38,566 bases of DNA from Candidatus Kaiserbacteria bacterium (GTDB lineage Bacteria; Patescibacteriota; Minisyncoccia; Phycocordibacterales; UBA2100): NCBI GenBank assembly GCA_016867375.1, contig VGJQ01000009.1:1-38566 (forward strand), in the 5' to 3' direction. A model generated the notes under the pieces. That model worked only from the letters and a program-made list of their open reading frames with translations. It was not told the DNA's origin and ran no database searches. The stretch's first letter is position 1. Each line of letters opens with the position of its first letter. Shown here one piece after another: positions 1,649 through 37,161 of this stretch. The position numbers and the translations under genes are program-made.

Positions 1649-1684
1649 GGCTGACAATTTTCCCAATTGGGATTTTTGTCAGCC
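1649..1684. repeat. CCCAATTGGGA-centred palindrome, copy 1
   Basis: A 36-bp inverted repeat with arms beginning GGCTGACA and a centre TCCCAATTGGGA. It matches the palindromes at 3201 and 22053, but its left arm carries AATTTT where a perfect arm would have AAAAAT. It lies between dnaK and the PaaX/Cas2-like gene, both on the minus strand. The remaining 1468-1648 stretch holds no gene. It has a C/T-rich tract with three tandem copies of a TTTCCCCATC-type unit near 1603-1631 and a weak possible dnaK promoter. Confidence 0.8.
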
Positions 1685-3139: not shown

Positions 3140-3171
3140 GCCCACACATAACGTATACGTTATGTGTGGGC
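3140..3171. repeat. 32-bp perfect palindrome between convergent genes
   Basis: GCCCACACATAACGTA followed directly by its exact reverse complement. It is flanked on the left by GGTCCCGTTCATAAATAA (3121-3138), a box that recurs near 13345-13427 and, inverted, near 23678. It has no T-tract. The stretch 3065-3329 contains no gene: it holds a terminator, this palindrome, the 3201 palindrome and about 90 bp with nothing else recognised. Confidence 0.85.
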
Positions 3172-3200: not shown

Positions 3201-3236
3201 GGCTGACAAAAATCCCAATTGGGATTTTTGTCAGCC
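3201..3236. repeat. CCCAATTGGGA-centred palindrome, copy 2 (perfect, 36 bp)
   Basis: GGCTGACAAAAATCCC, AATT, then the exact reverse complement of the first arm. Same family as 1649-1684 and 22053-22094. It lies between the convergent 2477 gene and grpE. Confidence 0.9.
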
Positions 3237-13280: not shown

Positions 13281-13508
13281 GCGGGACAGTGTGTATGTTG
13301 TTGCGAAACGCGCCCGCCTTTTGCTTTGCAATCAATAAGGGCTCGTCCACAAATAATGTACCCATTATTTGTGGACTACACTTATGGGCCCGTTCATTTG
13401 GTGTTGAAATTATTTATGGACGGGCCCTAACGCGCTGGACTTGGGGTAATCAAGAATGCGGGATTTCGCTGTGCTCGGACAGTCGCAACCACATACACAC
13501 TGTCCCGC
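13281..13508. mobile_element. MITE-like element with 26-bp terminal inverted repeats
   Basis: The left end 13281-13306 (GCGGGACAGTGTGTATGT...) and the right end 13483-13508 are reverse complements with one mismatch in 26. The 228-bp interior has no credible gene but contains two further hairpins (13345-13376 and 13386-13427). No target-site duplication was obvious. The surrounding gap 13216-13780 has no gene: it holds this element, a palindrome at 13555, an inverted repeat at 13619 and the copied alaS end at 13686. Confidence 0.6.
13345..13427. repeat. Two hairpins built from GGGCYCGTYCAYAAATAA boxes
   Basis: The first hairpin is perfect: GTCCACAAATAATG (13345-13358), loop TACC, and its complement to 13376. 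The second pairs GGGCCCGTTCAT (13386-13397) with ATGGACGGGCCC (13416-13427). All arms are versions of one box, also seen at 3121 and, inverted, near 23678. There are no T-tracts, so these are not terminators. Confidence 0.75.
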
Positions 13509-13554
13509 CCAACCTTGCTCATATCATCTCCAAAATATATTTTCCGGACAAAGC

Positions 13555-13592
13555 ACTTGTTTATAATTCGCGGCCGCGAATCATAAACAAGT
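13555..13592. repeat. 38-bp near-perfect palindrome
   Basis: ACTTGTTTATAATTCGCGG followed by its reverse complement with one mismatched pair, centred on a NotI-like GCGGCCGC. It is not followed by a T-tract. Confidence 0.8.
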
Positions 13593-13618
13593 ACTATAAA
13601 AACAGGAACGGGTTTGGG

Positions 13619-16378: not shown

Positions 16379-17308
16379 TCAGGCGTCGAAAAGCTCGTGC
16401 TTGGAACGCTTTTTTGCTGCGTATCGCTTCTCGCGAAGGCGCTTAGCGAGCAAGTAACGTGTTCGCGCCTGCACTTTTTCAAAAGCCTGTATTTCAAGCT
16501 GGCGGATGCGTTGGTGCGAGAGCCCAAACTCAGCACTCAGTGCTCTCAAGGTCTCCGGAGGTTCCGTCAGTCGCCGTGCCTCAAAGATGCGTCGCTTGCG
16601 CGGATCGAGCACGCCGAGTGCGGATCGCATCGCCTTGAGGCGGTTTTCTCCTTCCTCAACGGCGATGAGATAGTCTTCCATGTCGACGGCATTATCATCC
16701 TGTAACGCATCGACCCATTCGAGCACTTCGGCCCCTTTGTTCTTATTATCGGTCACCTTCTCATTGAGAGATGTGTCGGGCTGCAGACGCCGGCTGGCGT
16801 CCATGACCGTCGACTTCGATACGCTCAGAAGATAAGCAACCTCCTCAAGGTGTTTAGCTTTCAGATCGCCTTCGTAGTCGATACCGAGCACGCGCTTCAC
16901 TTTATGCAAGTTGAAAAAGGCCTTTTTAAAGTCCGATGTGGCCCCCAATCGTACGATAGAAAGCGTGCGCAGTACGTAGTCTTGCACCGCGGCACGAATC
17001 CACCACATGGCATACGTGGCAAATCGGAATCCACGCTCGGGGTCGAATCTGTCTGCCGCCTGCATGAGGCCGATGTTGGCCTCTTGTATGAGGTCGGCAA
17101 CCGGCAGACCGTATCCTCGATATTTGTTTGCCACAGCGACGGCAAGTCGAAGGTGGCTCGTGATGAGCTCGTGTGAGGATTCCCGATTTCCCATCCGTGC
17201 AGATCTTCCAAGATTTAATTCTTCTTCACGCTCAAGTATAGGCATGCTGCGAACGGCGTTGACGTAATGCGCCTCAGTCCCGCTTTCGGGGATGAAGTGT
17301 TTTCCCAT
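16379..17308 (-). CDS. rpoH: RpoH-like (sigma-32 type) RNA polymerase sigma factor
   Basis: 309 residues. Region 2: LITSHLRLAVAVANKYRGYG, LIQEANIGLMQAADRFDPER and FRFATYAMWWIRAAVQDYVL. Then SIVRLGATSDFKKAFFNLHK, which resembles the stretch around the RpoH box (FFNLRK) of heat-shock sigma factors. Region 4.2 is LSAEFGLSHQRIRQLEIQAF. There is no N-terminal region 1.1 and the length suits RpoH (about 285-300), so this is an alternative sigma and not the housekeeping one. The start is supported by GGGAGTAG ahead of the ATG, a Shine-Dalgarno most housekeeping genes here lack. Targets are unknown: dnaK and grpE in this window do not show clear sigma-32 promoters. Confidence 0.8.
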   Translation of the reverse strand: MGKHFIPESGTEAHYVNAVRSMPILEREEELNLGRSARMGNRESSHELITSHLRLAVAVANKYRGYGLPVADLIQEANIGLMQAADRFDPERGFRFATYAMWWIRAAVQDYVLRTLSIVRLGATSDFKKAFFNLHKVKRVLGIDYEGDLKAKHLEEVAYLLSVSKSTVMDASRRLQPDTSLNEKVTDNKNKGAEVLEWVDALQDDNAVDMEDYLIAVEEGENRLKAMRSALGVLDPRKRRIFEARRLTEPPETLRALSAEFGLSHQRIRQLEIQAFEKVQARTRYLLAKRLREKRYAAKKRSKHELFDA

Positions 17309-17396: not shown

Positions 17397-17436
17397 GGAG
17401 CTGGAGAGTCAGACTCTCCAGTCCCTTTCCAGCTCC
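17397..17436. repeat. AGTCNGACT-family palindrome upstream of rpoH
   Basis: CTGGAGAGTC, A, GACTCTCCAG (17401-17421) is a perfect odd palindrome with core AGTCAGACT. An outer pair GGAGCTGGA / TCCAGCTCC closes a larger hairpin. A partial core (GTCAGACTTTT) lies just left at about 17385. The rest of 17309-17607 holds the rpoH promoter and a small GCTCCCG/CGGGAGC hairpin near 17570; no gene seen. Confidence 0.8.
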
Positions 17437-22052: not shown

Positions 22053-22094
22053 AGTGGCCGATAAAAATCCCAATTGGGATTTTTATCGGCCACT
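22053..22094. repeat. CCCAATTGGGA-centred palindrome, copy 3 (perfect, 42 bp)
   Basis: AGTGGCCGATAAAAATCCC, AATT, exact reverse complement. Compared with 3201-3236 the arms differ at two positions (GGCTGAC to GGCCGAT) and both differences are matched on the other side. It lies between the MGMT-like gene and the Cas4/RecB-like gene. Confidence 0.9.
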
Positions 22095-25052: not shown

Positions 25053-26216
25053 TCACAGCGCCTCTATATGTCTCTCTATGCGCCGAATCACTCCCGCACC
25101 AAAGACACGATCATCATCATAGAGCACGAGGGACTGACCGGAAGACACAAGATGCGGCGCGTCAAACTGTACACGCATTCCATCGTCGGCTTGTCGCAAT
25201 GATACGGGAAACGGCGCTTCGCGATGGCGCGACTGCGCGAGTGTGGAAAGCGGGAGCTGTGGGGTCTCCCCGATCCAGTGCATATCTTCAAGCATGATTT
25301 CCCGGACCTCCCCGAGACTGCGGTCGAGAGAGACGGTGACTGTGTTGTCTTTGATCGAGGTGGCGATGACGTACTGAGCACCTTCCGTGTGTCCCGAAAC
25401 GCGGAATCCATGGCGCTGGCCGATCGTATAGAGCGCCGCACCATCGTGCGTACCGATTTTGTTGCCATCAGTGTCGATCACATCACCCTCTTTGAGCGTG
25501 ATATAACGCGCGAGAAAATCGCGCATACTCACGTCGCCCACAAAACAGAGCCCCTGGCTGTCGGGCTTGTGCGCGACCGGCAGACCACATGCCTGCGCAC
25601 GCTTTCGCACTTCGGACTTTGACAGATCACCGATCGGAAAAAGCGTCCGGGCGAGCTCTTCAGTGCGCACGCGGCAGAGGAAATACGACTGATCCTTTAG
25701 TGGATCGACGCCGCGCATAAGCTGCGGTGATAAGTCAGACTTATCACCATGGTGATAAGTCTGACTTATCACCGCGGGCTCCACTCGGGCGTAGTGGCCG
25801 GTGGCGATCAAATCCGCGCCGTGCGCAAACGCCCATTGGGCGAAATGGCCGAATTTGATCTTTTCGTTGCAGAGGACGTCGGGATTGGGCGTGATGCCGC
25901 GCTCATAGTCGCGTACCATGTGCTCCACGATTTCTGTCTTGTATTCGTGCGAGAGGTCGATTTCGCGAAAGGGAATGTCGAGCGCAGCCGCGATGCGCAT
26001 GGCATCGAGGCGATCCTCGCGCCAGGTGCACTCAATGAATTCAGGTTGCCAGATCTTAATGAAAACCCCCGCGACATCGTACCCCCGTTCCTTGAGAATA
26101 GCCGCCGAAGTGCCGCTATCTACTCCTCCCGAGAGGCCGACGAAGACTTTAGTTTTTTCCGATTCCCGTTCTTGAATCTTGTTTTGAAGAGGGATGGTGG
26201 CAATTTCTTGTGGCAT
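25053..26216 (-). CDS. mnmA: tRNA-specific 2-thiouridylase MnmA with in-frame palindrome insertion
   Basis: 387 residues from the ATG at 26216. Thiolates U34 of Lys, Glu and Gln tRNAs using ATP. P-loop SGGVDS (29-34), catalytic nucleophile in NPDVLCNEK (C116), persulphide cysteine in GLCFVG (C224), and GHYARV, RGVDPLKDQSYFL and TIGQRHGF. Between HYARVE and LMRGVDP the enzyme carries the extra stretch AVISQTYHHGDKSDLSP (about 148-164), encoded entirely by a perfect 52-bp palindrome. Family members normally have a shorter loop here. All catalytic residues are intact, so the enzyme is probably active. It follows the AAA/DUF4143 gene by 4 nt. Confidence 0.96.
   Translation of the reverse strand: MPQEIATIPLQNKIQERESEKTKVFVGLSGGVDSGTSAAILKERGYDVAGVFIKIWQPEFIECTWREDRLDAMRIAAALDIPFREIDLSHEYKTEIVEHMVRDYERGITPNPDVLCNEKIKFGHFAQWAFAHGADLIATGHYARVEPAVISQTYHHGDKSDLSPQLMRGVDPLKDQSYFLCRVRTEELARTLFPIGDLSKSEVRKRAQACGLPVAHKPDSQGLCFVGDVSMRDFLARYITLKEGDVIDTDGNKIGTHDGAALYTIGQRHGFRVSGHTEGAQYVIATSIKDNTVTVSLDRSLGEVREIMLEDMHWIGETPQLPLSTLAQSRHREAPFPVSLRQADDGMRVQFDAPHLVSSGQSLVLYDDDRVFGAGVIRRIERHIEAL
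25724..25775. repeat. 52-bp perfect palindrome inside mnmA (AGTCNGACT family)
   Basis: Two odd palindromes GGTGATAAGTC-A-GACTTATCACC and its reverse complement, joined by AT and capped by GC on both sides. The whole 52 bp is its own reverse complement. Cores are AGTCAGACT and AGTCTGACT. It is in frame and adds residues to the enzyme without a stop. Confidence 0.95.
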
Positions 26217-26220
26217 ATGT

Positions 26221-27504
26221 TTATGTTTTGGCTTTATCAAGAAGCCATTCCCATAAAGGCCTGAACTGTATGGTCATTCCACCCTTCTCCATATCACGCT
26301 TATCATCCCACGTAAGGACAAGGAGATTGTTCACATGTAATTCCTTGCCTGCTTCAACCAAGGCTTTTATTTCTCTTTGCACCACATCCGGATTACTCGA
26401 TTCATAGGTCACCTGTATCAATTCGGTTATTTCCGTACCGGACTTCAGTGCAAAATCCACTTCACGATCGTTTCTGGTGTGGTAATAGAATATTTCCCGA
26501 TTAGACTCACTGCCTCGTTTCACCAGCTCGGTGAACACGAGATTTTCCATGTACTTGCCATTGTTCGGTGAATGCTGAACTGCTTTGGACGTTATAAATC
26601 CGTTATCGACTACATATGCTTTCTTTGGAGATCTGAGACGCAAACCGGCTTTTGCAGAATAGCGATGGAGAGAAAATATAAGATAGGCCTCGGTAAGATA
26701 GCCGAGATATTTTTCAAGTGTAACGCCGCTTTTGAAGCCAAGAATGTTGGCAAGTTTGCGTATGCTGTACTGGCCGGTAACGTTGTTTATGAGGAATGAA
26801 CCGAGGTTGTCTATCTGCTCGGAAAAGCGCACCTTATGCCGCTTGACCACGTCCTTAAAAAGCAGGGAGTCAAATAGCACATCAAGATATCCTCTTGGAT
26901 CGAGACCTTTGGTAACTACTTCCGGATAGCCACCACTTAGCATGTATTCATTTAAAATCTGTAGGAGTTTTCCCTTTTCTGAAGGTATGGCAAGTTTTTC
27001 TTCTGTCACTTCATACTGTTTGGCACGAAGTATTTCGGAAAAATCAAACGGGAGTATTTGTATCGGTATATGACGGCCAGTAAGATGGGTGGCAAGTTCT
27101 TTGGATAGCAATCGAGCATTCGATCCCGTAAGTACGAGATTATAGCCTTCACGATGCAAACGATTCACGAACAGTTCCCATTTGGGAAGATTCTGTATTT
27201 CATCAAAGAGAATATTTTTTGTTTCTCCGTAGGCTTGTCGCAATTCCGACATCAGTTCATTGAGATCAAACGTATCTTCTCCGGGGAGTGATTCATCATC
27301 AAAATTGAAATACGCAAACTCTTTATCTTTCAGGAGCATCAGTGAAAAGACCGACTTGCCGGCTCGACGAGGCCCCAAAACCACTTTTATCAAATCCGAA
27401 TCAAGCCACTTTTTGGCCTCTTTTTCCTTGGTACGCTCTATGTATGGCAGAGACAAAAGTCTCTCTTTTTCGCCTTTTTGCCTTAAAACAGTTGATTTAA
27501 GCAT
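26221..27504 (-). CDS. AAA-family ATPase with DUF4143 domain
   Basis: 427 residues. Walker A GPRRAGKS (44-51), Walker B NILFDEIQ (D101, E102), sensor segment LVLTGSNARLLSKELATHLTGR, then a winged-helix region (YSIRKLANILGFKSGVTLEK) and the DUF4143-type C-terminal domain with a nuclease-like strand pattern (FYYHTRNDREVDFALKSG, ITELIQVTYES). The family is widespread in archaea and mobile DNA with no settled role. The gene looks visibly richer in A/T and AAA/AGA codons than its neighbours, suggesting recent transfer. It ends 4 nt before mnmA. Confidence 0.88.
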   Translation of the reverse strand: MLKSTVLRQKGEKERLLSLPYIERTKEKEAKKWLDSDLIKVVLGPRRAGKSVFSLMLLKDKEFAYFNFDDESLPGEDTFDLNELMSELRQAYGETKNILFDEIQNLPKWELFVNRLHREGYNLVLTGSNARLLSKELATHLTGRHIPIQILPFDFSEILRAKQYEVTEEKLAIPSEKGKLLQILNEYMLSGGYPEVVTKGLDPRGYLDVLFDSLLFKDVVKRHKVRFSEQIDNLGSFLINNVTGQYSIRKLANILGFKSGVTLEKYLGYLTEAYLIFSLHRYSAKAGLRLRSPKKAYVVDNGFITSKAVQHSPNNGKYMENLVFTELVKRGSESNREIFYYHTRNDREVDFALKSGTEITELIQVTYESSNPDVVQREIKALVEAGKELHVNNLLVLTWDDKRDMEKGGMTIQFRPLWEWLLDKAKT

Positions 27505-31539: not shown

Positions 31540-32436
31540 ATGAGCACTATGTCGCGGACCTCTATTTTCCTCGTTCTCGTCGCAGTAGGTCTTGTATCAC
31601 TTCTCGCGCATCTATCCGGCGGAATCGATATCCAGATTCTCAATCCGCAGGGTCCGATTGCACTCGAACAGAAGCGACTCATTATCACGGCCGTCCTCCT
31701 GATGCTCATCGTCGTGGTGCCCGTGTACGTACTCGCCGCCCTCATCGCTTGGAAATACCGTGCGACCAACACAGACGCTCCGTACACGCCCGACCACGAT
31801 CATGATCAGCGGATCGAGATCGTCTGGTGGACGATTCCCCTACTGATCATCCTTACGCTCGGCACAATCACCTGGAAAACGACCCATGCACTTGATCCGT
31901 TTAGACCCCTCGATTCGACAGTATCCCCGGTCACGATCCAGGTCGTCGCTCTCAACTGGAAGTGGCTCTTTATATACCCGGAGTACGGCATCGCCACGGT
32001 CAATTATGTCGCATTTCCCGAGGACACGCCCGTCTCATTTCATATTACCGCCGACGCGCCGATGAACTCCTTCTGGATTCCGAGCCTCGGAAGCCAGATC
32101 TATGCGATGGCCGGCATGTCTACACGCCTGCACCTCCTGGCAGATCAGCCTGGTACCTACCACGGCCTGTCGGCCAATTGGAGCGGTGAGGGCTTCTCAG
32201 GTATGAAATTCATCGCACAGTCCCTTTCGCGGGAAGATTTTGATTCTTGGGTCGCGGCGGTCCGACAAATCTCATCTGTATTCGATACCGGTGAATATGA
32301 TCTGCTCGCTTTACCGAGTAGCCATACCCCTGTGAGATATTTTGGCCATGCTCAACCGGGGTTGTATGATTATGTGGTGAATAAATATATGCAGCCGCAC
32401 GATACTATGCCGGTCCGTGTGCTTCATGATGAATAA
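31540..32436 (+). CDS. cyoA: Cytochrome bo3 quinol oxidase subunit II
   Basis: 298 residues. N-terminal hydrophobic segment, then two helices (about 47-70 and 95-115), then the cupredoxin domain: [40 protein letters not shown] and [14 protein letters not shown]. The CuA cysteines and histidines of cytochrome c oxidases are replaced, as in quinol oxidases. In E. coli CyoA the signal ends LSGC and is lipidated; here the equivalent is LSGG, so the lipid anchor is lost and the first segment may stay as a membrane helix. First gene of the cyo locus; its stop is 1 nt from the cyoB ATG. Confidence 0.95.
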
Positions 32437-32437
32437 T

Positions 32438-34411
32438 ATGTTTGGAAAAATGTCTTTCGCCGCACTCCCGCCCAACGCCATCGTCTTGTCGGCGTTTCTC
32501 TTTATGATTGCGCTTGCAGGACTCATAATCGGCGCACTCTTCTACTATAAGCGCTGGCGTTGGCTCTGGGATGAATGGCTTACCTCGCTCGACGCCAAGA
32601 AAATCGGAGTCATGTATATCATCGTCGGATTCGTCATGCTCGTGCGCGGCGCCATTGATGCCGCCTTGATGCGCGGACAGCAGGCGGTCGCCGCAGGCGA
32701 TTCGCTCGGATATCTCTCTCCCGAGCACTTCGGACAGATATTTACCGCCCACGGCGTGATCATGATTTTTTTCGTCGCGATGCCGCTGATGTTTGGCCTC
32801 TTCAATCTCGTCGTACCTATGCAGATCGGGGCGCGCGATGTCGCCTTTCCCTTCCTTAATTCCCTGAGCTTCTGGCTCTTTGCCGCCGCCGCAGTACTTA
32901 TGAATATCTCGCTTGTCTACGGCGAATTTGCCTCGATTGGTTGGCTCGGGTATCCGCCGCTCTCTGAGCTTGAGTACAGTCCCGGCGTCGGCGTCGATTA
33001 CTACATATGGATACTCCAGATTGCCGGCCTCGGAAGCCTCTTTTCTGCGATCAATTTCCTCGTCACTATCCTGAAGATGCGCGCGCCCGGCATGACGCTC
33101 ATGCGCATGCCGATGTTTGAATGGACGACTCTCGCGAGCGTCGTCCTCGTGATCGTGATATTCCCCATACTCACGGCGACCCTTGCCATGCTTTCGCTCG
33201 ATCGCCTGCTCGGAATGCACTTCTTCACGTCGGATTTTGGCGGCAACGCCATGATGTATGTGAATCTCATCTGGGCGTGGGGTCATCCGGAAGTCTACGT
33301 GCTCATACTGCCAGCATTTGGCGCATTTTCAGAGATCGTGCCGACCTTCGCCAAGAAGCGTCTTTTCGGCTATAGCTCGATGGTCGCCGCGTCGATCGTG
33401 ATCTGCTTTCTCTCCTTCGTCGTCTGGCTCCACCACTTCTTCACGATGGGTGCTGGCGCCAATGTAAATGCCTTCTTCGGGATCGCGACGATGGTGATCG
33501 CCATCCCGACCGGTGTAAAGGTCTTCAACTGGCTCGCGACGATGTATCGCGGGCGCATCACGTTTACCACGCCGATGTATTGGTTTCTCGGCTTCGTCGG
33601 CACCTTTACGCTCGGCGGCATGACCGGCGTCATGATGGCGGTGCCCGGCATCGACTTCCAGATGCACAACAGCCTCTTTCTCGTCGCACATTTCCACAAT
33701 ATGGTGATCGGCGGCGTCGTCTTCGGGTATCTCGCCGCGCTCTCTTTCTGGTTCCCCAAGATTTTCGGCTTCACGCTCGATGAAAAGTGGGGTATTCGCG
33801 CCTTTTGGTGCTGGCTTATCGGATTCTTCGTGGCCTTCATGCCGCTTTACCTCCTCGGATTTATGGGTGCGACGCGCCGTCTCGAGCACTACGACGCATC
33901 GACGGGCTGGCAGCCGCTCTTTATCGTCGCCGGTATCGGAGTCGTGATCATCGCGCTCGGTATCGTCTTTCAGGCAGTGCAGCTTGTCGTAAGTATCATC
34001 AAGCGCCACGAATATGCCGACACGACGGGTGACCCATGGGATGGCCGGACGCTCGAATGGTCGATCCCTTCTCCCGCACCTTTTTACAATTTCGCTATCA
34101 TCCCGGCCGTGCACGGACGCGACGCATTTTGGGAGATGAAGCAGTCCGATCCCATTGTGCAAGCCAGGCCTGCACAAGAGTATGTCGATATAGAATTGCC
34201 GTGCAATACGCCTGTCGGGGTGTATATCGGCGCCTGTGCGTTTGTATTTGGATTTGCAATCGTCTGGCACATGTGGTGGCTCGCATTGCTCGGATTCCTC
34301 GGCGTCGTCGGACTTCTCATTGCACGATCTTTTGACGAGAATACTGAATACATTCTTCCTGCCGCCGAAATCGCGCGCCTCGATGCCGCATACACACAAA
34401 AAACCATATGA
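32438..34411 (+). CDS. cyoB: Cytochrome bo3 quinol oxidase subunit I
   Basis: 657 residues from the ATG at 32438 ([10 protein letters not shown]), which matches the usual CyoB N-terminus; earlier frame starts overlap cyoA. It carries the low-spin haem ligands H105 and, in [12 protein letters not shown], the second His. The CuB/Tyr site is [12 protein letters not shown] plus [10 protein letters not shown], the K-channel lysine sits in [10 protein letters not shown], and the D-channel Asp in GARDVAFP. R70, D74, H97 and Q100 correspond to the E. coli quinol-site residues R71, D75, H98 and Q101. It is therefore a complete proton-pumping oxidase by sequence. Close similarity to proteobacterial CyoB suggests acquisition by transfer. 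Confidence 0.97.
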
Positions 34412-34423
34412 CAACTACTCACA

Positions 34424-34509
34424 TCGTCTTTGCGAGCGAAGCGAAGCAATCCAAGGTATGTGCACGAACTCTAGATTGCTTCGATCGCTCTGCTCCCTCG
34501 CAAAAACGA
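34424..34509. repeat. GCGAAGCAATCC-type hairpin element, copy 2
   Basis: TCGTCTTTGCGAGCGAAG then CGAAGCAATCC on the left; TAGATTGCTTCG and CCTCGCAAAAACGA on the right, forming a long inverted repeat. It occupies almost the whole cyoB-cyoC gap. Similar repeats are common in several unrelated bacterial groups. Confidence 0.82.
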
Positions 34510-34529
34510 ATGCAAAGAATTTCTAATAT

Positions 34530-35144
34530 ATGACAAACTCAATCATCAATCTTACCGAGAATAAGACAGTCTTTGGGTTCTGGATATACATCCTGAGCGA
34601 TTGTTTCCTGTTTGGGACACTCTTCGCCACGTACGCAGTGTTGCGTGGCAATACATTTGGCGGCCCGAGTGGCGCGGAGCTCTTCGATCTATCATTTGTA
34701 CTAGTAGAGACGCTTATCCTCCTCACGAGCAGCTTCACAGCAGGGCTCGCCATGCTCGCCGCAAATAAACATTACACCACATCCAAAAATAAGGAGGTGT
34801 CACCGCCCTATGTCCAGGTGGTAGGACTGCTGGGGCTCACACTCCTTCTGGGCATCACCTTCCTGGGGCTCGAGCTCAAAGAATTCACGCAATTTGTCGC
34901 CGAAGGCGCAGGCCCTCAGCGCAGCGGCTTCCTCTCCGCATTCTTTACGCTCGTCGGTACACACGGCCTCCACGTCGCCGCAGGCTCCGTATGGCTGATC
35001 GTCCTTATGATACAGATACTGCGCCGCGGGCTCACCGAGCCGATCATGAGTCGCTTTATGCGCTGGAGTCTCTTCTGGCATTTCCTCGACGTAGTGTGGA
35101 TCTTCATCTTCACCTTTGTGTACCTTATGGGAGTCATGATCTAA
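34530..35144 (+). CDS. cyoC: Cytochrome bo3 quinol oxidase subunit III
   Basis: 204 residues, five predicted helices as in E. coli CyoC. Motifs are [66 protein letters not shown] and [20 protein letters not shown]. It stabilises subunit I. A repeat element separates it from cyoB and could affect coupling; it runs straight into cyoD. Confidence 0.96.
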
Positions 35145-35150
35145 ATCGAT

Positions 35151-35549
35151 ATGCAACACGAGACACACATGAAAGAATCTGCATCGAATGGATCCCACGG
35201 ATCACTCAGAATGTACGTGACCGGCTTTTTCCTCTCGATCATACTGACTTTGGCCGCGTATCTACTCGTGGATCAGCACGTGAATGCCGATCACGCGGTG
35301 TGGAGCCACTCTTTTCTGATGATCGCCGTCGTCGTGCTCGCACTCCTGCAGATGGTCGTCCAACTCGTGTGCTTCCTCCATCTTGGGCGTGAGTCGAGGC
35401 CCTACTGGAATCTCGTCGTATTTCTCTACGCATTCCTCCTCGTCGCCATTATCGTGATCGGCTCGCTCTGGGTGATGCATCACCTCAACTACAACATGGG
35501 GGCAATAAGCGTACCTGGCGCCCATATGGAGGCGAGAAGCCTCGAGTGA
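35151..35549 (+). CDS. cyoD: Cytochrome bo3 quinol oxidase subunit IV
   Basis: 132 residues, three helices. The N-terminus MQHETHMKESASNGSHGSLR leads into YVTGFFLSIILTLAAYLLVD; the conserved LALLQMVVQLVCFLHLG motif follows and the last helix is LVVFLYAFLLVAIIVIGSLW. An alternative start is the ATG at 35169. The C-terminal tail (GAISVPGAHMEARSLE) is longer than usual. Assists copper-site assembly in subunit I. Confidence 0.93.
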   Translation: MQHETHMKESASNGSHGSLRMYVTGFFLSIILTLAAYLLVDQHVNADHAVWSHSFLMIAVVVLALLQMVVQLVCFLHLGRESRPYWNLVVFLYAFLLVAIIVIGSLWVMHHLNYNMGAISVPGAHMEARSLE

Positions 35550-35569
35550 TGTGCCTGTACCACGTAATC

Positions 35570-35598
35570 TTGACAGTTTGCAAGTTACTTGCTATGAA
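35570..35598 (+). promoter_or_regulatory. Promoter for the 35667 gene inside the cyo locus
   Basis: TTGACA at 35570-35575, 17 bp, TATGAA at 35593-35598, about 70 bp before the start codon. The gene between cyoD and cyoE can thus be expressed separately from cyoABCD. Confidence 0.6.
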
Positions 35599-35666
35599 TC
35601 ATCCAGTGTTGGGGTGAGGTCCTCGCACGCTGTGTAAATACACCTCATAGAGAAAGGAACCGGGCC

Positions 35667-36176
35667 ATGCTCACGGTCGCAGATTATCTGTTCGCCCTTA
35701 TTGGGTTTGGGTTAGGATGGTATTCCGCTCGTCATATCGGTGAAATGATGCAAAGCCTGCTTGGAGGTCTCTTCGGCGCGCTGGTGGGTACTTTGGTGGG
35801 ACTCATAACGGCAGGTGTGGTTGGCGCTACGTTTCCGACCCACTGGGTAGAATCGGAGACAGTGCCGTTGGCAAGTCTCCGTAGTACGGATGGGCTAAGT
35901 GGGTCCTTTGTACTGGGTAGCGGCATTATCGGGACCACATCCTATTACTTCTACTACGAAAAAACACCCGATGGTGGGTATCAGCCGGGAAAAGTGGAGG
36001 CAACAAACCGAGTCACCATCTACGAGCAGGCGGGCCGAAATGTCGGCGAACTCAAAGTATTCAAACTCGCCTTCGTCCATCCGTCAGTCAAATGGTTCGG
36101 AATCGTGCCTAATGAGTATTCCTACCAGTTTTTCATCCCCGAGGGCAGCCTCCAAAAAAAATACATCGTCCAATAA
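35667..36176 (+). CDS. Small membrane-anchored protein of unknown function between cyoD and cyoE
   Basis: 169 residues, start fixed by AGAAAGGAACCGGGCC before the ATG. Two N-terminal glycine-rich helices (about 4-20 and 30-55: GGLFGALVGTLVGLITAGVV) precede a beta-rich outer or cytoplasmic domain (TTSYYFYYEKTPDGGYQPGK, WFGIVPNEYSYQFFIPEGSL). No family recognised. It has its own promoter and is followed by a terminator. It is an insertion into an otherwise standard cyoABCDE order, so it may be unrelated to the oxidase or an added accessory. Confidence 0.7.
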   Translation: MLTVADYLFALIGFGLGWYSARHIGEMMQSLLGGLFGALVGTLVGLITAGVVGATFPTHWVESETVPLASLRSTDGLSGSFVLGSGIIGTTSYYFYYEKTPDGGYQPGKVEATNRVTIYEQAGRNVGELKVFKLAFVHPSVKWFGIVPNEYSYQFFIPEGSLQKKYIVQ

Positions 36177-36186
36177 TCCGCTCTTC

Positions 36187-36222
36187 GCTCCACTGGATAT
36201 ATTCCGGTGGAGCTTTCTCTTT
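36187..36222 (+). terminator. Rho-independent terminator after the 35667 gene
   Basis: GCTCCACTGG, 7-nt loop, CCGGTGGAGC, then TTTCTCTTT. It would separate cyoE from the upstream transcript. Confidence 0.85.
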
Positions 36223-36273
36223 GCCGAATATCCCTATTTGCGCAGATACCCAATGCACGGCACAATACTGGCT

Positions 36274-37161
36274 ATGAAATCTCCTACTGCGGATGCCCTA
36301 TCGACTATACGAGCGTATACTACTCTCACCAAACCCGGTATCATTCTCGGCAACATCATCACCGCTCTGGCGGGATTCTTCCTCGCCTCGCAGGGAACTA
36401 TCGACATCGGATTGCTATGCGCCATGCTCGCCGGCCTCTCGCTCGTGGTTGCCTCCGGTTGTGTGCTCAACAATGTCTACGATCGCGATATCGATGCGCT
36501 CATGGAGCGCACGCGCAGCCGCGCACTCGCGCGCGGACTCATCCCCGTGCATTATGCGATCGCCTTCAGTGCGATGGTCGGATTGCTCGGTGCATGGATA
36601 CTCTTTGCCTATACCAACCCTCTGACGCTCGCCGTCGCGGTATTTGGATTCTTTATGTATACGGTCGTGTATACACTGTGGGCCAAGCGCCACACGAGCT
36701 ATGGCACATTGATCGGAAGCGTCTCCGGAGCTATGCCGCCCGTGATCGGATATGTAGCCGTGACCGGTTCGCTCGATGCAGCAGCATATCTGCTCTGCAT
36801 CATCCTTGTCCTGTGGCAGTTACCTCATTTCTATGCGATCGGCCTGTACCGACTCAAAGACTACACCGCGGCAAAGATCCCGATCCTTCCGGTCACACGC
36901 GGAGTACTCGCGACCAAGCTGCAGATAATGCTCTACATATCCGAGTTCATCGTCGTCACTACGCTCTTGACGCTTTTCGGATATACAGGATTTTTCTACC
37001 TCACGATCATGCTTTTACTCGGATTTACCTGGCTGGGACTGTCTCTACGCGGATTCCAGAGCGCCGACACGCGCGTCTGGGCTCGGAGGATGTTTTTCTT
37101 CTCGCTCGTGGTGATTGTGATGTTTGCCGTCATGATCGTCCTCGACAAGTACACCATATAG
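36274..37161 (+). CDS. cyoE: Protohaem IX farnesyltransferase (haem O synthase)
   Basis: 295 residues from the ATG at 36274 (MKSPTADALS); an ATG at 36253 is possible and neither has a Shine-Dalgarno. UbiA-type prenyltransferase with about nine helices. The first Asp-rich motif is in NNVYDRDIDALMERTRSR and the second in YRLKDYTAAKIPILPV, as in CyoE/CtaB. TKPGIILGNIITALAGFFLA is the family N-terminal mark. It makes haem O for the CyoB binuclear centre, so the locus encodes both enzyme and cofactor step. The long in-frame extension upstream to 35899 overlaps the 35667 gene and a terminator and is not real. Confidence 0.95.
   Translation: MKSPTADALSTIRAYTTLTKPGIILGNIITALAGFFLASQGTIDIGLLCAMLAGLSLVVASGCVLNNVYDRDIDALMERTRSRALARGLIPVHYAIAFSAMVGLLGAWILFAYTNPLTLAVAVFGFFMYTVVYTLWAKRHTSYGTLIGSVSGAMPPVIGYVAVTGSLDAAAYLLCIILVLWQLPHFYAIGLYRLKDYTAAKIPILPVTRGVLATKLQIMLYISEFIVVTTLLTLFGYTGFFYLTIMLLLGFTWLGLSLRGFQSADTRVWARRMFFFSLVVIVMFAVMIVLDKYTI

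What the first reader, a model, noticed from the sequence alone, without database searches (positions are those of the whole stretch)
25724..25775. Perfect 52-bp palindrome inserted in frame within mnmA
The sequence is exactly its own reverse complement and made of two nested odd palindromes (cores AGTCAGACT and AGTCTGACT). It encodes AVISQTYHHGDKSDLSP between two conserved MnmA motifs where the family normally has a shorter loop. The frame is kept and all catalytic residues remain. This closely parallels Rickettsia palindromic elements, which insert in frame into protein genes; I know of no such description in CPR. The same core occurs in intergenic palindromes of this window.
Basis: partly seen in the sequence, partly recalled or inferred. 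Interest (0 to 1): 0.78.

Follow-up and report, generated by a model that had tools for sequence, protein, structure and literature searches.

The report
Mobile DNA palindromes inside essential genes
A 52-letter perfect palindrome in the tRNA-modification gene mnmA of an uncultured, tiny-genome bacterium belongs to a set of small mobile palindromes, apparently spread by single-strand-DNA transposases, that repeatedly land in frame in flexible loops of essential proteins in this group.

Summary
The 52-bp perfect palindrome at 25724-25775 is real, lies in frame in mnmA, and far exceeds chance. The genome belongs to a relative of Ca. Kaiserbacteria (CPR). Its core AGTCAGACT occurs 58 times genome-wide against 5 for the reversed control. 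Nearly the same double palindrome, encoding the same VISQTYHHGDKSDLSP peptide, also sits in pheT, which carries four in-frame palindromes; tsaD carries several, and gatA, tgt, uvrC, ligA and others carry more. The genome has 13 REP-associated tyrosine transposase (RAYT)-like genes. In the genus, 30 of 44 such genes have the same palindrome on both sides, against 0 of 48 control genes, and some in-gene palindromes match the RAYT-flanking palindrome of the same genome exactly. The mnmA, pheT and tsaD loops are hit by unrelated palindrome families in different species. Best reading: REP/REPIN-like elements mobilised by RAYTs, surviving in frame in disordered loops. In-frame REPs are known in proteobacteria and Rickettsia, so the kind is not new; the CPR setting, scale (a dozen transposase-palindrome pairs in 1 Mb), lack of a GTAG tag, and recurrent hits on the same loops look new. 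No RAYT carrying the GGTGATA palindrome itself was found.

The parts
25724..25775 (.). 52-bp perfect double palindrome (REPIN-like), in frame in mnmA
   Evidence: 100% complementary arms, no spacer; ssDNA -29.4 kcal/mol, z -10.7; RNA -47.2 kcal/mol, z -11.1
25726..25748 (.). unit 1, odd palindrome GGTGATAAGTCAGACTTATCACC
25751..25773 (.). unit 2, odd palindrome GGTGATAAGTCTGACTTATCACC (unit 1 with the centre base flipped)
25053..26240 (-). mnmA, tRNA 2-thiouridine(34) synthase; host gene of the insertion, frame kept (the true start codon may lie inside this ORF, 3' of the TTG that begins at 26240)
17401..17421 (.). single unit CTGGAGAGTCAGACTCTCCAG, outside the predicted genes; same family as the palindromes that flank the RAYT gene on contig C25
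13616..13678 (.). inverted pair of AGTCWGACT units (CTGGAGA-type arms) forming a stem-loop, in a region without a recognised gene

Best explanation
The palindrome is a small non-autonomous mobile element of the REP/REPIN kind: two 23-bp perfect palindromes side by side that fold into a hairpin as single-stranded DNA. Elements of this kind are spread in this bacterium by REP-associated tyrosine transposases (HUH-type, IS200/IS605 superfamily), which presumably recognise the folded single strand, cut it with the catalytic tyrosine and join it elsewhere. Copies that land in a coding sequence persist only when frame and fold survive, so they collect in flexible, disordered loops of essential proteins (MnmA, PheT, TsaD and others), where they are translated. 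Shown: the palindrome, its in-frame position, multi-gene and multi-family copies, pairing of RAYT genes with matching palindromes, exact same-genome matches for some in-gene copies, recurrent hits on the same loops. Inferred: the enzymatic steps, that RAYTs move these copies, and that the GGTGATA family has or had a RAYT of its own.
For: Core AGTCAGACT 58x in the genome vs 5 for the reversed control, in many arm versions that keep pairing (46 of 58 sites have at least 5 of 7 arm bases paired). The double palindrome and its peptide recur in pheT, where the 68%-identical G022 PheT has a 17-residue gap. pheT (4 elements), tsaD (several), gatA, tgt, uvrC, a NifS-type desulfurase, a PilB/GspE-type ATPase, ligA, smc and rnhB carry palindromes in frame. 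RAYTs: 13 in G000; 30 of 44 REP-class RAYTs of the genus have the same palindrome on both sides vs 0 of 48 control genes; HxH and one Tyr invariant in 36 of 36 aligned RAYTs; RAYT similarity correlates with palindrome similarity (Mantel r 0.56, 0 of 5000 permutations). Same-genome links: pheT G000 27/27 nt to RAYT L088, pheT G006 23/23 to RAYT L242, pheT G042 27/31 to RAYT L129. In-gene palindromes exceed synonymous-codon shuffles: pheT 34 vs 0.55, mnmA 5 vs 0.2. Unrelated families hit the same mnmA loop in different species, and likewise loops of pheT and tsaD. AlphaFold2: the MnmA insert (157-168) is below pLDDT 50, between two strands.
Against: No RAYT flanked by GGTGATA palindromes was found in G000, or beside the one copy in a relative, so this subfamily is linked only through shared apex, architecture and gene targets. 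The GTAG tag of described REPs is not clearly enriched (9 of 78 vs 4.7 expected). RAYT profile matches are below the NCBIfam cut-off. No pair of strains close enough to show an exact empty site was available; the mnmA loop is 12 aa (36 nt) longer than in G022 although the palindrome is 52 bp, so the exact target is unknown. Some recurrent pheT hits look inherited rather than independent.
Confidence: 0.78

Rival explanations
1. Palindromes arise and are perfected in place by hairpin-templated replication errors (quasi-palindrome correction), with no transposition; loops tolerate the result.
For: Palindromes are perfect even in genes that have diverged: the shared pheT insert at residues 505-513 keeps 6 of 7 informative codons identical between G000 and G022, against 52% in the rest of the gene. 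Outer arms differ between species but still pair.
Against: Copying in place cannot give the same roughly 50-bp sequence and peptide in mnmA and pheT, nor exact identity to palindromes flanking RAYT genes of the same genome, nor the 30 of 44 vs 0 of 48 RAYT association. It may still explain why inserted units stay perfect.
Confidence: 0.1
2. The palindromes are kept for a cellular function (regulator binding site, mRNA hairpin or transcription pause), and transposase linkage is secondary.
For: They form strong RNA hairpins. One GGTGATA copy in G022 lies just upstream of a gene whose product looks like ribosomal protein L10 (identified by eye). The pheT insert is conserved at DNA level.
Against: Many families with different arms, present or absent at the same position between species; hits in unrelated genes; copies inside the transposase genes themselves. 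Most of this reads as selfish DNA.
Confidence: 0.07
3. Assembly artefact or chimeric joining.
For: The window comes from a 50-contig draft assembly, and perfect palindromes can be produced by template switching in library preparation. No reads were available.
Against: Same family on five contigs of G000 and independently in G022; palindromes in the same loops of separately assembled genomes; frame kept in essential genes; same unit in pheT.
Confidence: 0.03

Closest known systems
REP sequences and REPINs mobilised by RAYT/TnpA-REP (PMC3116915, PMC8266576)
   Same: Short palindromes in many copies, doublets folding into hairpins, HUH/Tyr transposase gene with matching palindromes beside it, perfect palindromes known for group 3 REPs
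   Different: No GTAG tag at the foot; 12-13 divergent RAYTs, most with their own palindrome, in about 1 Mb; a third of sampled palindromes lie in ORFs; CPR host
Intragenic GTAG and CGTC REPs (PMC3733652)
   Same: REPs and dimers translated in frame inside genes, including tRNA synthetase and tRNA modification genes; different REPs at about the same site reported for recB of two Xanthomonas species
   Different: Here the same loops of mnmA, pheT and tsaD are hit by many families across a genus, with exact matches to RAYT flanks of the same genome
Rickettsia palindromic elements (reviewed in PMC10969869)
   Same: In-frame palindromic insertions in unrelated protein genes of a reduced genome
   Different: RPEs there are about 150 bp with a conserved peptide; the units here are about 23 bp or 50-bp doublets and come in many sequence families tied to RAYT genes
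IS200/IS605 insertion sequences (short TnpA)
   Same: Y1/HUH transposase superfamily, hairpins at the ends; short TnpA copies of 147-170 aa are present in the same genus (L101-L106)
   Different: RAYTs here are mostly 220-276 aa, diverse and nearly one of a kind in the genome

Membership tests
REP/REPIN with RAYT | short (20-50 nt) palindrome in many genomic copies | tested here: met
REP/REPIN with RAYT | RAYT gene with matching palindromes in its immediate flanks | tested here: met
   30 of 44 vs 0 of 48 control genes; met for the system as a whole, but not for the GGTGATA subfamily, whose RAYT was not found
REP/REPIN with RAYT | transposase with HUH motif and catalytic tyrosine | tested here: met
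   HxH and one Tyr invariant in 36 of 36; Pfam Y1_Tnp; best NCBIfam match REP_Tyr_transpos, below its cut-off
REP/REPIN with RAYT | doublets in inverted orientation forming a hairpin | tested here: met
   52-bp unit and several others; some doublets have the same centre base
REP/REPIN with RAYT | GTAG (or GGAG/CGTC) tetranucleotide at the foot | tested here: not met
   GTAG 9 of 78 vs 4.7 control, GGAG 6 vs 5.7, CGTC 2 vs 5.0
REP/REPIN with RAYT | cleavage and strand transfer of the single-stranded palindrome by the RAYT | not testable with these tools
   needs protein and oligonucleotides
Rickettsia palindromic elements | in-frame insertion into protein genes | tested here: met
Rickettsia palindromic elements | about 150-bp element with a conserved encoded peptide | tested here: not met
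   units of about 23 bp and doublets of about 50 bp, many unrelated families

The most novel reading that the evidence does not exclude
A reduced CPR genome carries a dozen coexisting transposase-palindrome pairs that act as a standing source of new protein loops: palindromes with frames open to translation are repeatedly dropped into the same loops of essential enzymes across species, and stay perfect because of DNA-level correction or re-insertion, so the proteome is being diversified by REPs.
Probability: 0.25. Interest if true: 0.88.

Novelty: new variant of a known kind. Interest (0 to 1): 0.72.

Why it matters
REPs are usually thought of as extragenic, and a given RAYT as one gene with one REP set. 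Here streamlined bacteria of about 1 Mb carry many RAYT-REP pairs and tolerate translated hairpins in core tRNA-modification, tRNA-charging and DNA-repair genes. The many matched pairs give a natural data set for how a RAYT reads its palindrome, and the repeated hits on defined loops let one test where essential enzymes tolerate insertions and whether this shapes protein evolution in CPR. The searched library gave no description of it in CPR; that library is incomplete.

Tried and rejected
(2) Finding a RAYT flanked by GGTGATA palindromes: none in G000, none at the G022 copy. (3) GTAG/GGAG/CGTC tags: not clearly enriched. (4) Exact empty site for mnmA: the closest relative is only about 72% identical and the loop is variable, so insertion borders could not be fixed. 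(5) A separate class of Y1 transposases (L107-L115, L234) has no flanking palindromes; eight of these were set aside in the both-sides count after looking at the flanks. (6) tsaD genes of ten other genera of the order mostly lack in-gene palindromes (one of ten, L264), so the density seems to be a trait of this genus in the sample seen. (7) Chance palindromes from codon usage: rejected by synonymous shuffles.

Full report
OBSERVATION. The strongest inverted repeat of the window is 25724-25775, 26+26 nt, fully complementary without spacer. It is two adjacent 23-bp odd palindromes that differ only in the centre base. It lies in a 395-aa ORF on the minus strand that matches MnmA well above the curated cut-off. 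In an alignment with 15 genus members the loop between TGHYAR and KDQSYF is 31 aa here and 19 aa in the closest relative (72% identity), while the invariant motifs are intact. AlphaFold2 (mean pLDDT 84.8) gives pLDDT below 50 only for a few stretches, among them 157-168, the heart of the insert, between strands 151-154 and 173-176.

GENOME. The nearest named relatives are Candidatus Kaiserbacteria, a CPR lineage. The assembly has 1.008 Mb in 50 contigs. The apex AGTCAGACT occurs 58 times, against 5 for the reversed control. The arms next to it vary (TGTCAAA, GTACACA, GGTGATA, TGGCACA, CTGGAGA, TGTAGAA and more) but 46 of 58 sites keep at least 5 of 7 arm bases paired. An unbiased sample of 235.6 kb has 64 perfect inverted repeats with arms of 10 or more against 1.7 expected; 21 lie in ORFs although about 79% of the sample is coding, so coding sequence is under-hit but far from empty. 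Some of the 64 are probably ordinary terminators.

OTHER IN-FRAME COPIES. pheT (C4) has four palindromes: GDKLNLSP, PVISQTYHHGDKSDLSP (the mnmA peptide), NVGHPMSYI and NVGSVGSYI. The 68%-identical PheT of G022 lacks the second (17-residue gap) and the fourth (8-residue gap), shares the third, and has a same-length segment without the palindrome at the first. tsaD (C37) carries two double AAAGGCGACGCCTTT units, a TCACACGAAGCAGCTTCGTGTGA unit and a double GGTGACAAGT/GGTGATAAGT unit. Palindromes were also seen inside gatA, tgt, uvrC, a NifS-type cysteine desulfurase, a PilB/GspE-type ATPase, ligA, smc and rnhB. For these last genes the gap against relatives was not tested.

TRANSPOSASES. The genome has 12 Y1_Tnp genes, and 13 matches to the NCBIfam REP-associated tyrosine transposase model, all below its curated cut-off. 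In 36 aligned RAYTs of the genus both histidines of the HUH motif and one tyrosine are invariant. Of 44 RAYTs that are not of the palindrome-free class, 36 have a palindrome within 150 bp and 30 have the same palindrome on both sides; of 48 mnmA/pheT control genes 9 have any and none has the same on both sides. The palindrome-free class was set aside after looking at the flanks, which favours the RAYT figure; with its 8 loci in that test included it is 30 of 52. Similar RAYTs have similar palindromes (Mantel r 0.56, none of 5000 permutations; 21 loci, palindromes chosen by hand from the scan). Several RAYT genes also hold a copy of their palindrome inside the ORF.

LINK BETWEEN RAYTS AND IN-GENE COPIES. 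pheT of G000: 27 of 27 nt found at RAYT L088 of the same genome. pheT of G006: 23 of 23 at RAYT L242, same genome. pheT of G042: 27 of 31 at RAYT L129, same genome. Other in-gene palindromes found no such match among the RAYT loci fetched, which are only part of those in the genus. The GGTGATA family itself occurs only in G000 (10 units) and once in G022 among 52 genomes, and no RAYT with that palindrome was found.

RECURRENCE. The mnmA loop carries GGTGATA (G000), a 48-bp perfect TTCGACC double palindrome (G002), AACGAC-type palindromes (G007, G010, G012, G015) and a GGCAAGGCGACGCC-type one (G051). One pheT loop (P0001 about 345) carries several unrelated families in at least eight genomes, some of which look inherited within a subgroup. 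tsaD shows three such loops. In 30 pheT genes there are 34 palindromes of score 10 or more against 0.55 after synonymous shuffling; in 25 mnmA genes 5 against 0.2.

MECHANISM. Shown: pairing of transposase genes with palindromes, multi-copy spread, in-frame residence, recurrence on loops. Inferred from the known biochemistry of TnpA-REP (PMC8266576): recognition of the folded single strand, cleavage through tyrosine, strand transfer. The 52-bp unit folds strongly as ssDNA and RNA. The unusual perfection of an old insert (pheT 505-513, 6 of 7 informative codons identical between G000 and G022 against 52% elsewhere) needs an additional explanation: DNA-level correction, re-insertion or selection.

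COMPARISON. REPs translated in frame have been described in several bacteria, including dimers, tRNA-related genes and one case of different REPs at about the same site (PMC3733652); RPEs in Rickettsia are the classic case (PMC10969869). Perfectly palindromic REPs are known for group 3 TnpA-REP. So the finding is a variant of a known kind. It differs in lacking the GTAG tag, in the number of RAYT-palindrome pairs per genome, in recurrence over defined loops, and in host lineage. 90 of 142 genomes of the class have a match to the RAYT model, so the transposase is widespread there, although the match does not separate the RAYT subgroups.

LIMITS.

Noticed in passing
window 1649-1684, 2326-2347, 3201-3236, 22053-22094; also L189 9054-9091, L193 220-257: A second palindrome family with core TCCCAATTGGGA and variable paired arms, even-centred; no RAYT with it was seen.
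   Followed up: partly
window 3140-3171, 13345-13376; L174 1430, L179 1556, L183 6415, L186 4434, L191 9206: Family GTCCACACATAACGTACCCGTTATGTGTGGAC in many copies; one copy lies just downstream of the RAYT in L080, otherwise no linked transposase seen.
   Followed up: no
window 13552-13595; L191 2937-2980: Repeated 44-bp palindrome AGTACTTGTTTATGATTCGCGG / CCGCGAATCATAAACAAGTACT.
   Followed up: no
window 31540-37161: Cytochrome o ubiquinol oxidase-like operon (CyoB above its NCBIfam cut-off), notable in a CPR bacterium.
   Followed up: no
window 16379-17308: Sigma factor whose best family matches are RpoH/sigma-32 type.
   Followed up: no
RAYT loci L079, L080, L082, L085, L087, L127, L230, L232, L237, L286: RAYT genes carry their own palindrome inside the coding sequence, often at a similar distance from the end; could be insertion or self-regulation.
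   Followed up: partly
L107-L115, L234: A distinct class of Y1 transposase (about 205-276 aa) in the genus without flanking palindromes.
   Followed up: partly
L189 9393-9445: 53-bp perfect inverted repeat (25-nt arms, 3-nt loop) in frame inside rnhB, encoding GGCDGHHCTACNGAHRIH, unrelated to the families above.
   Followed up: no
L144 (G022 pheT) and L015/L143 (G000 pheT), residues 505-513: A palindrome shared by both species is identical at nearly all synonymous sites while the rest of the gene is about half identical by codon.
   Followed up: partly
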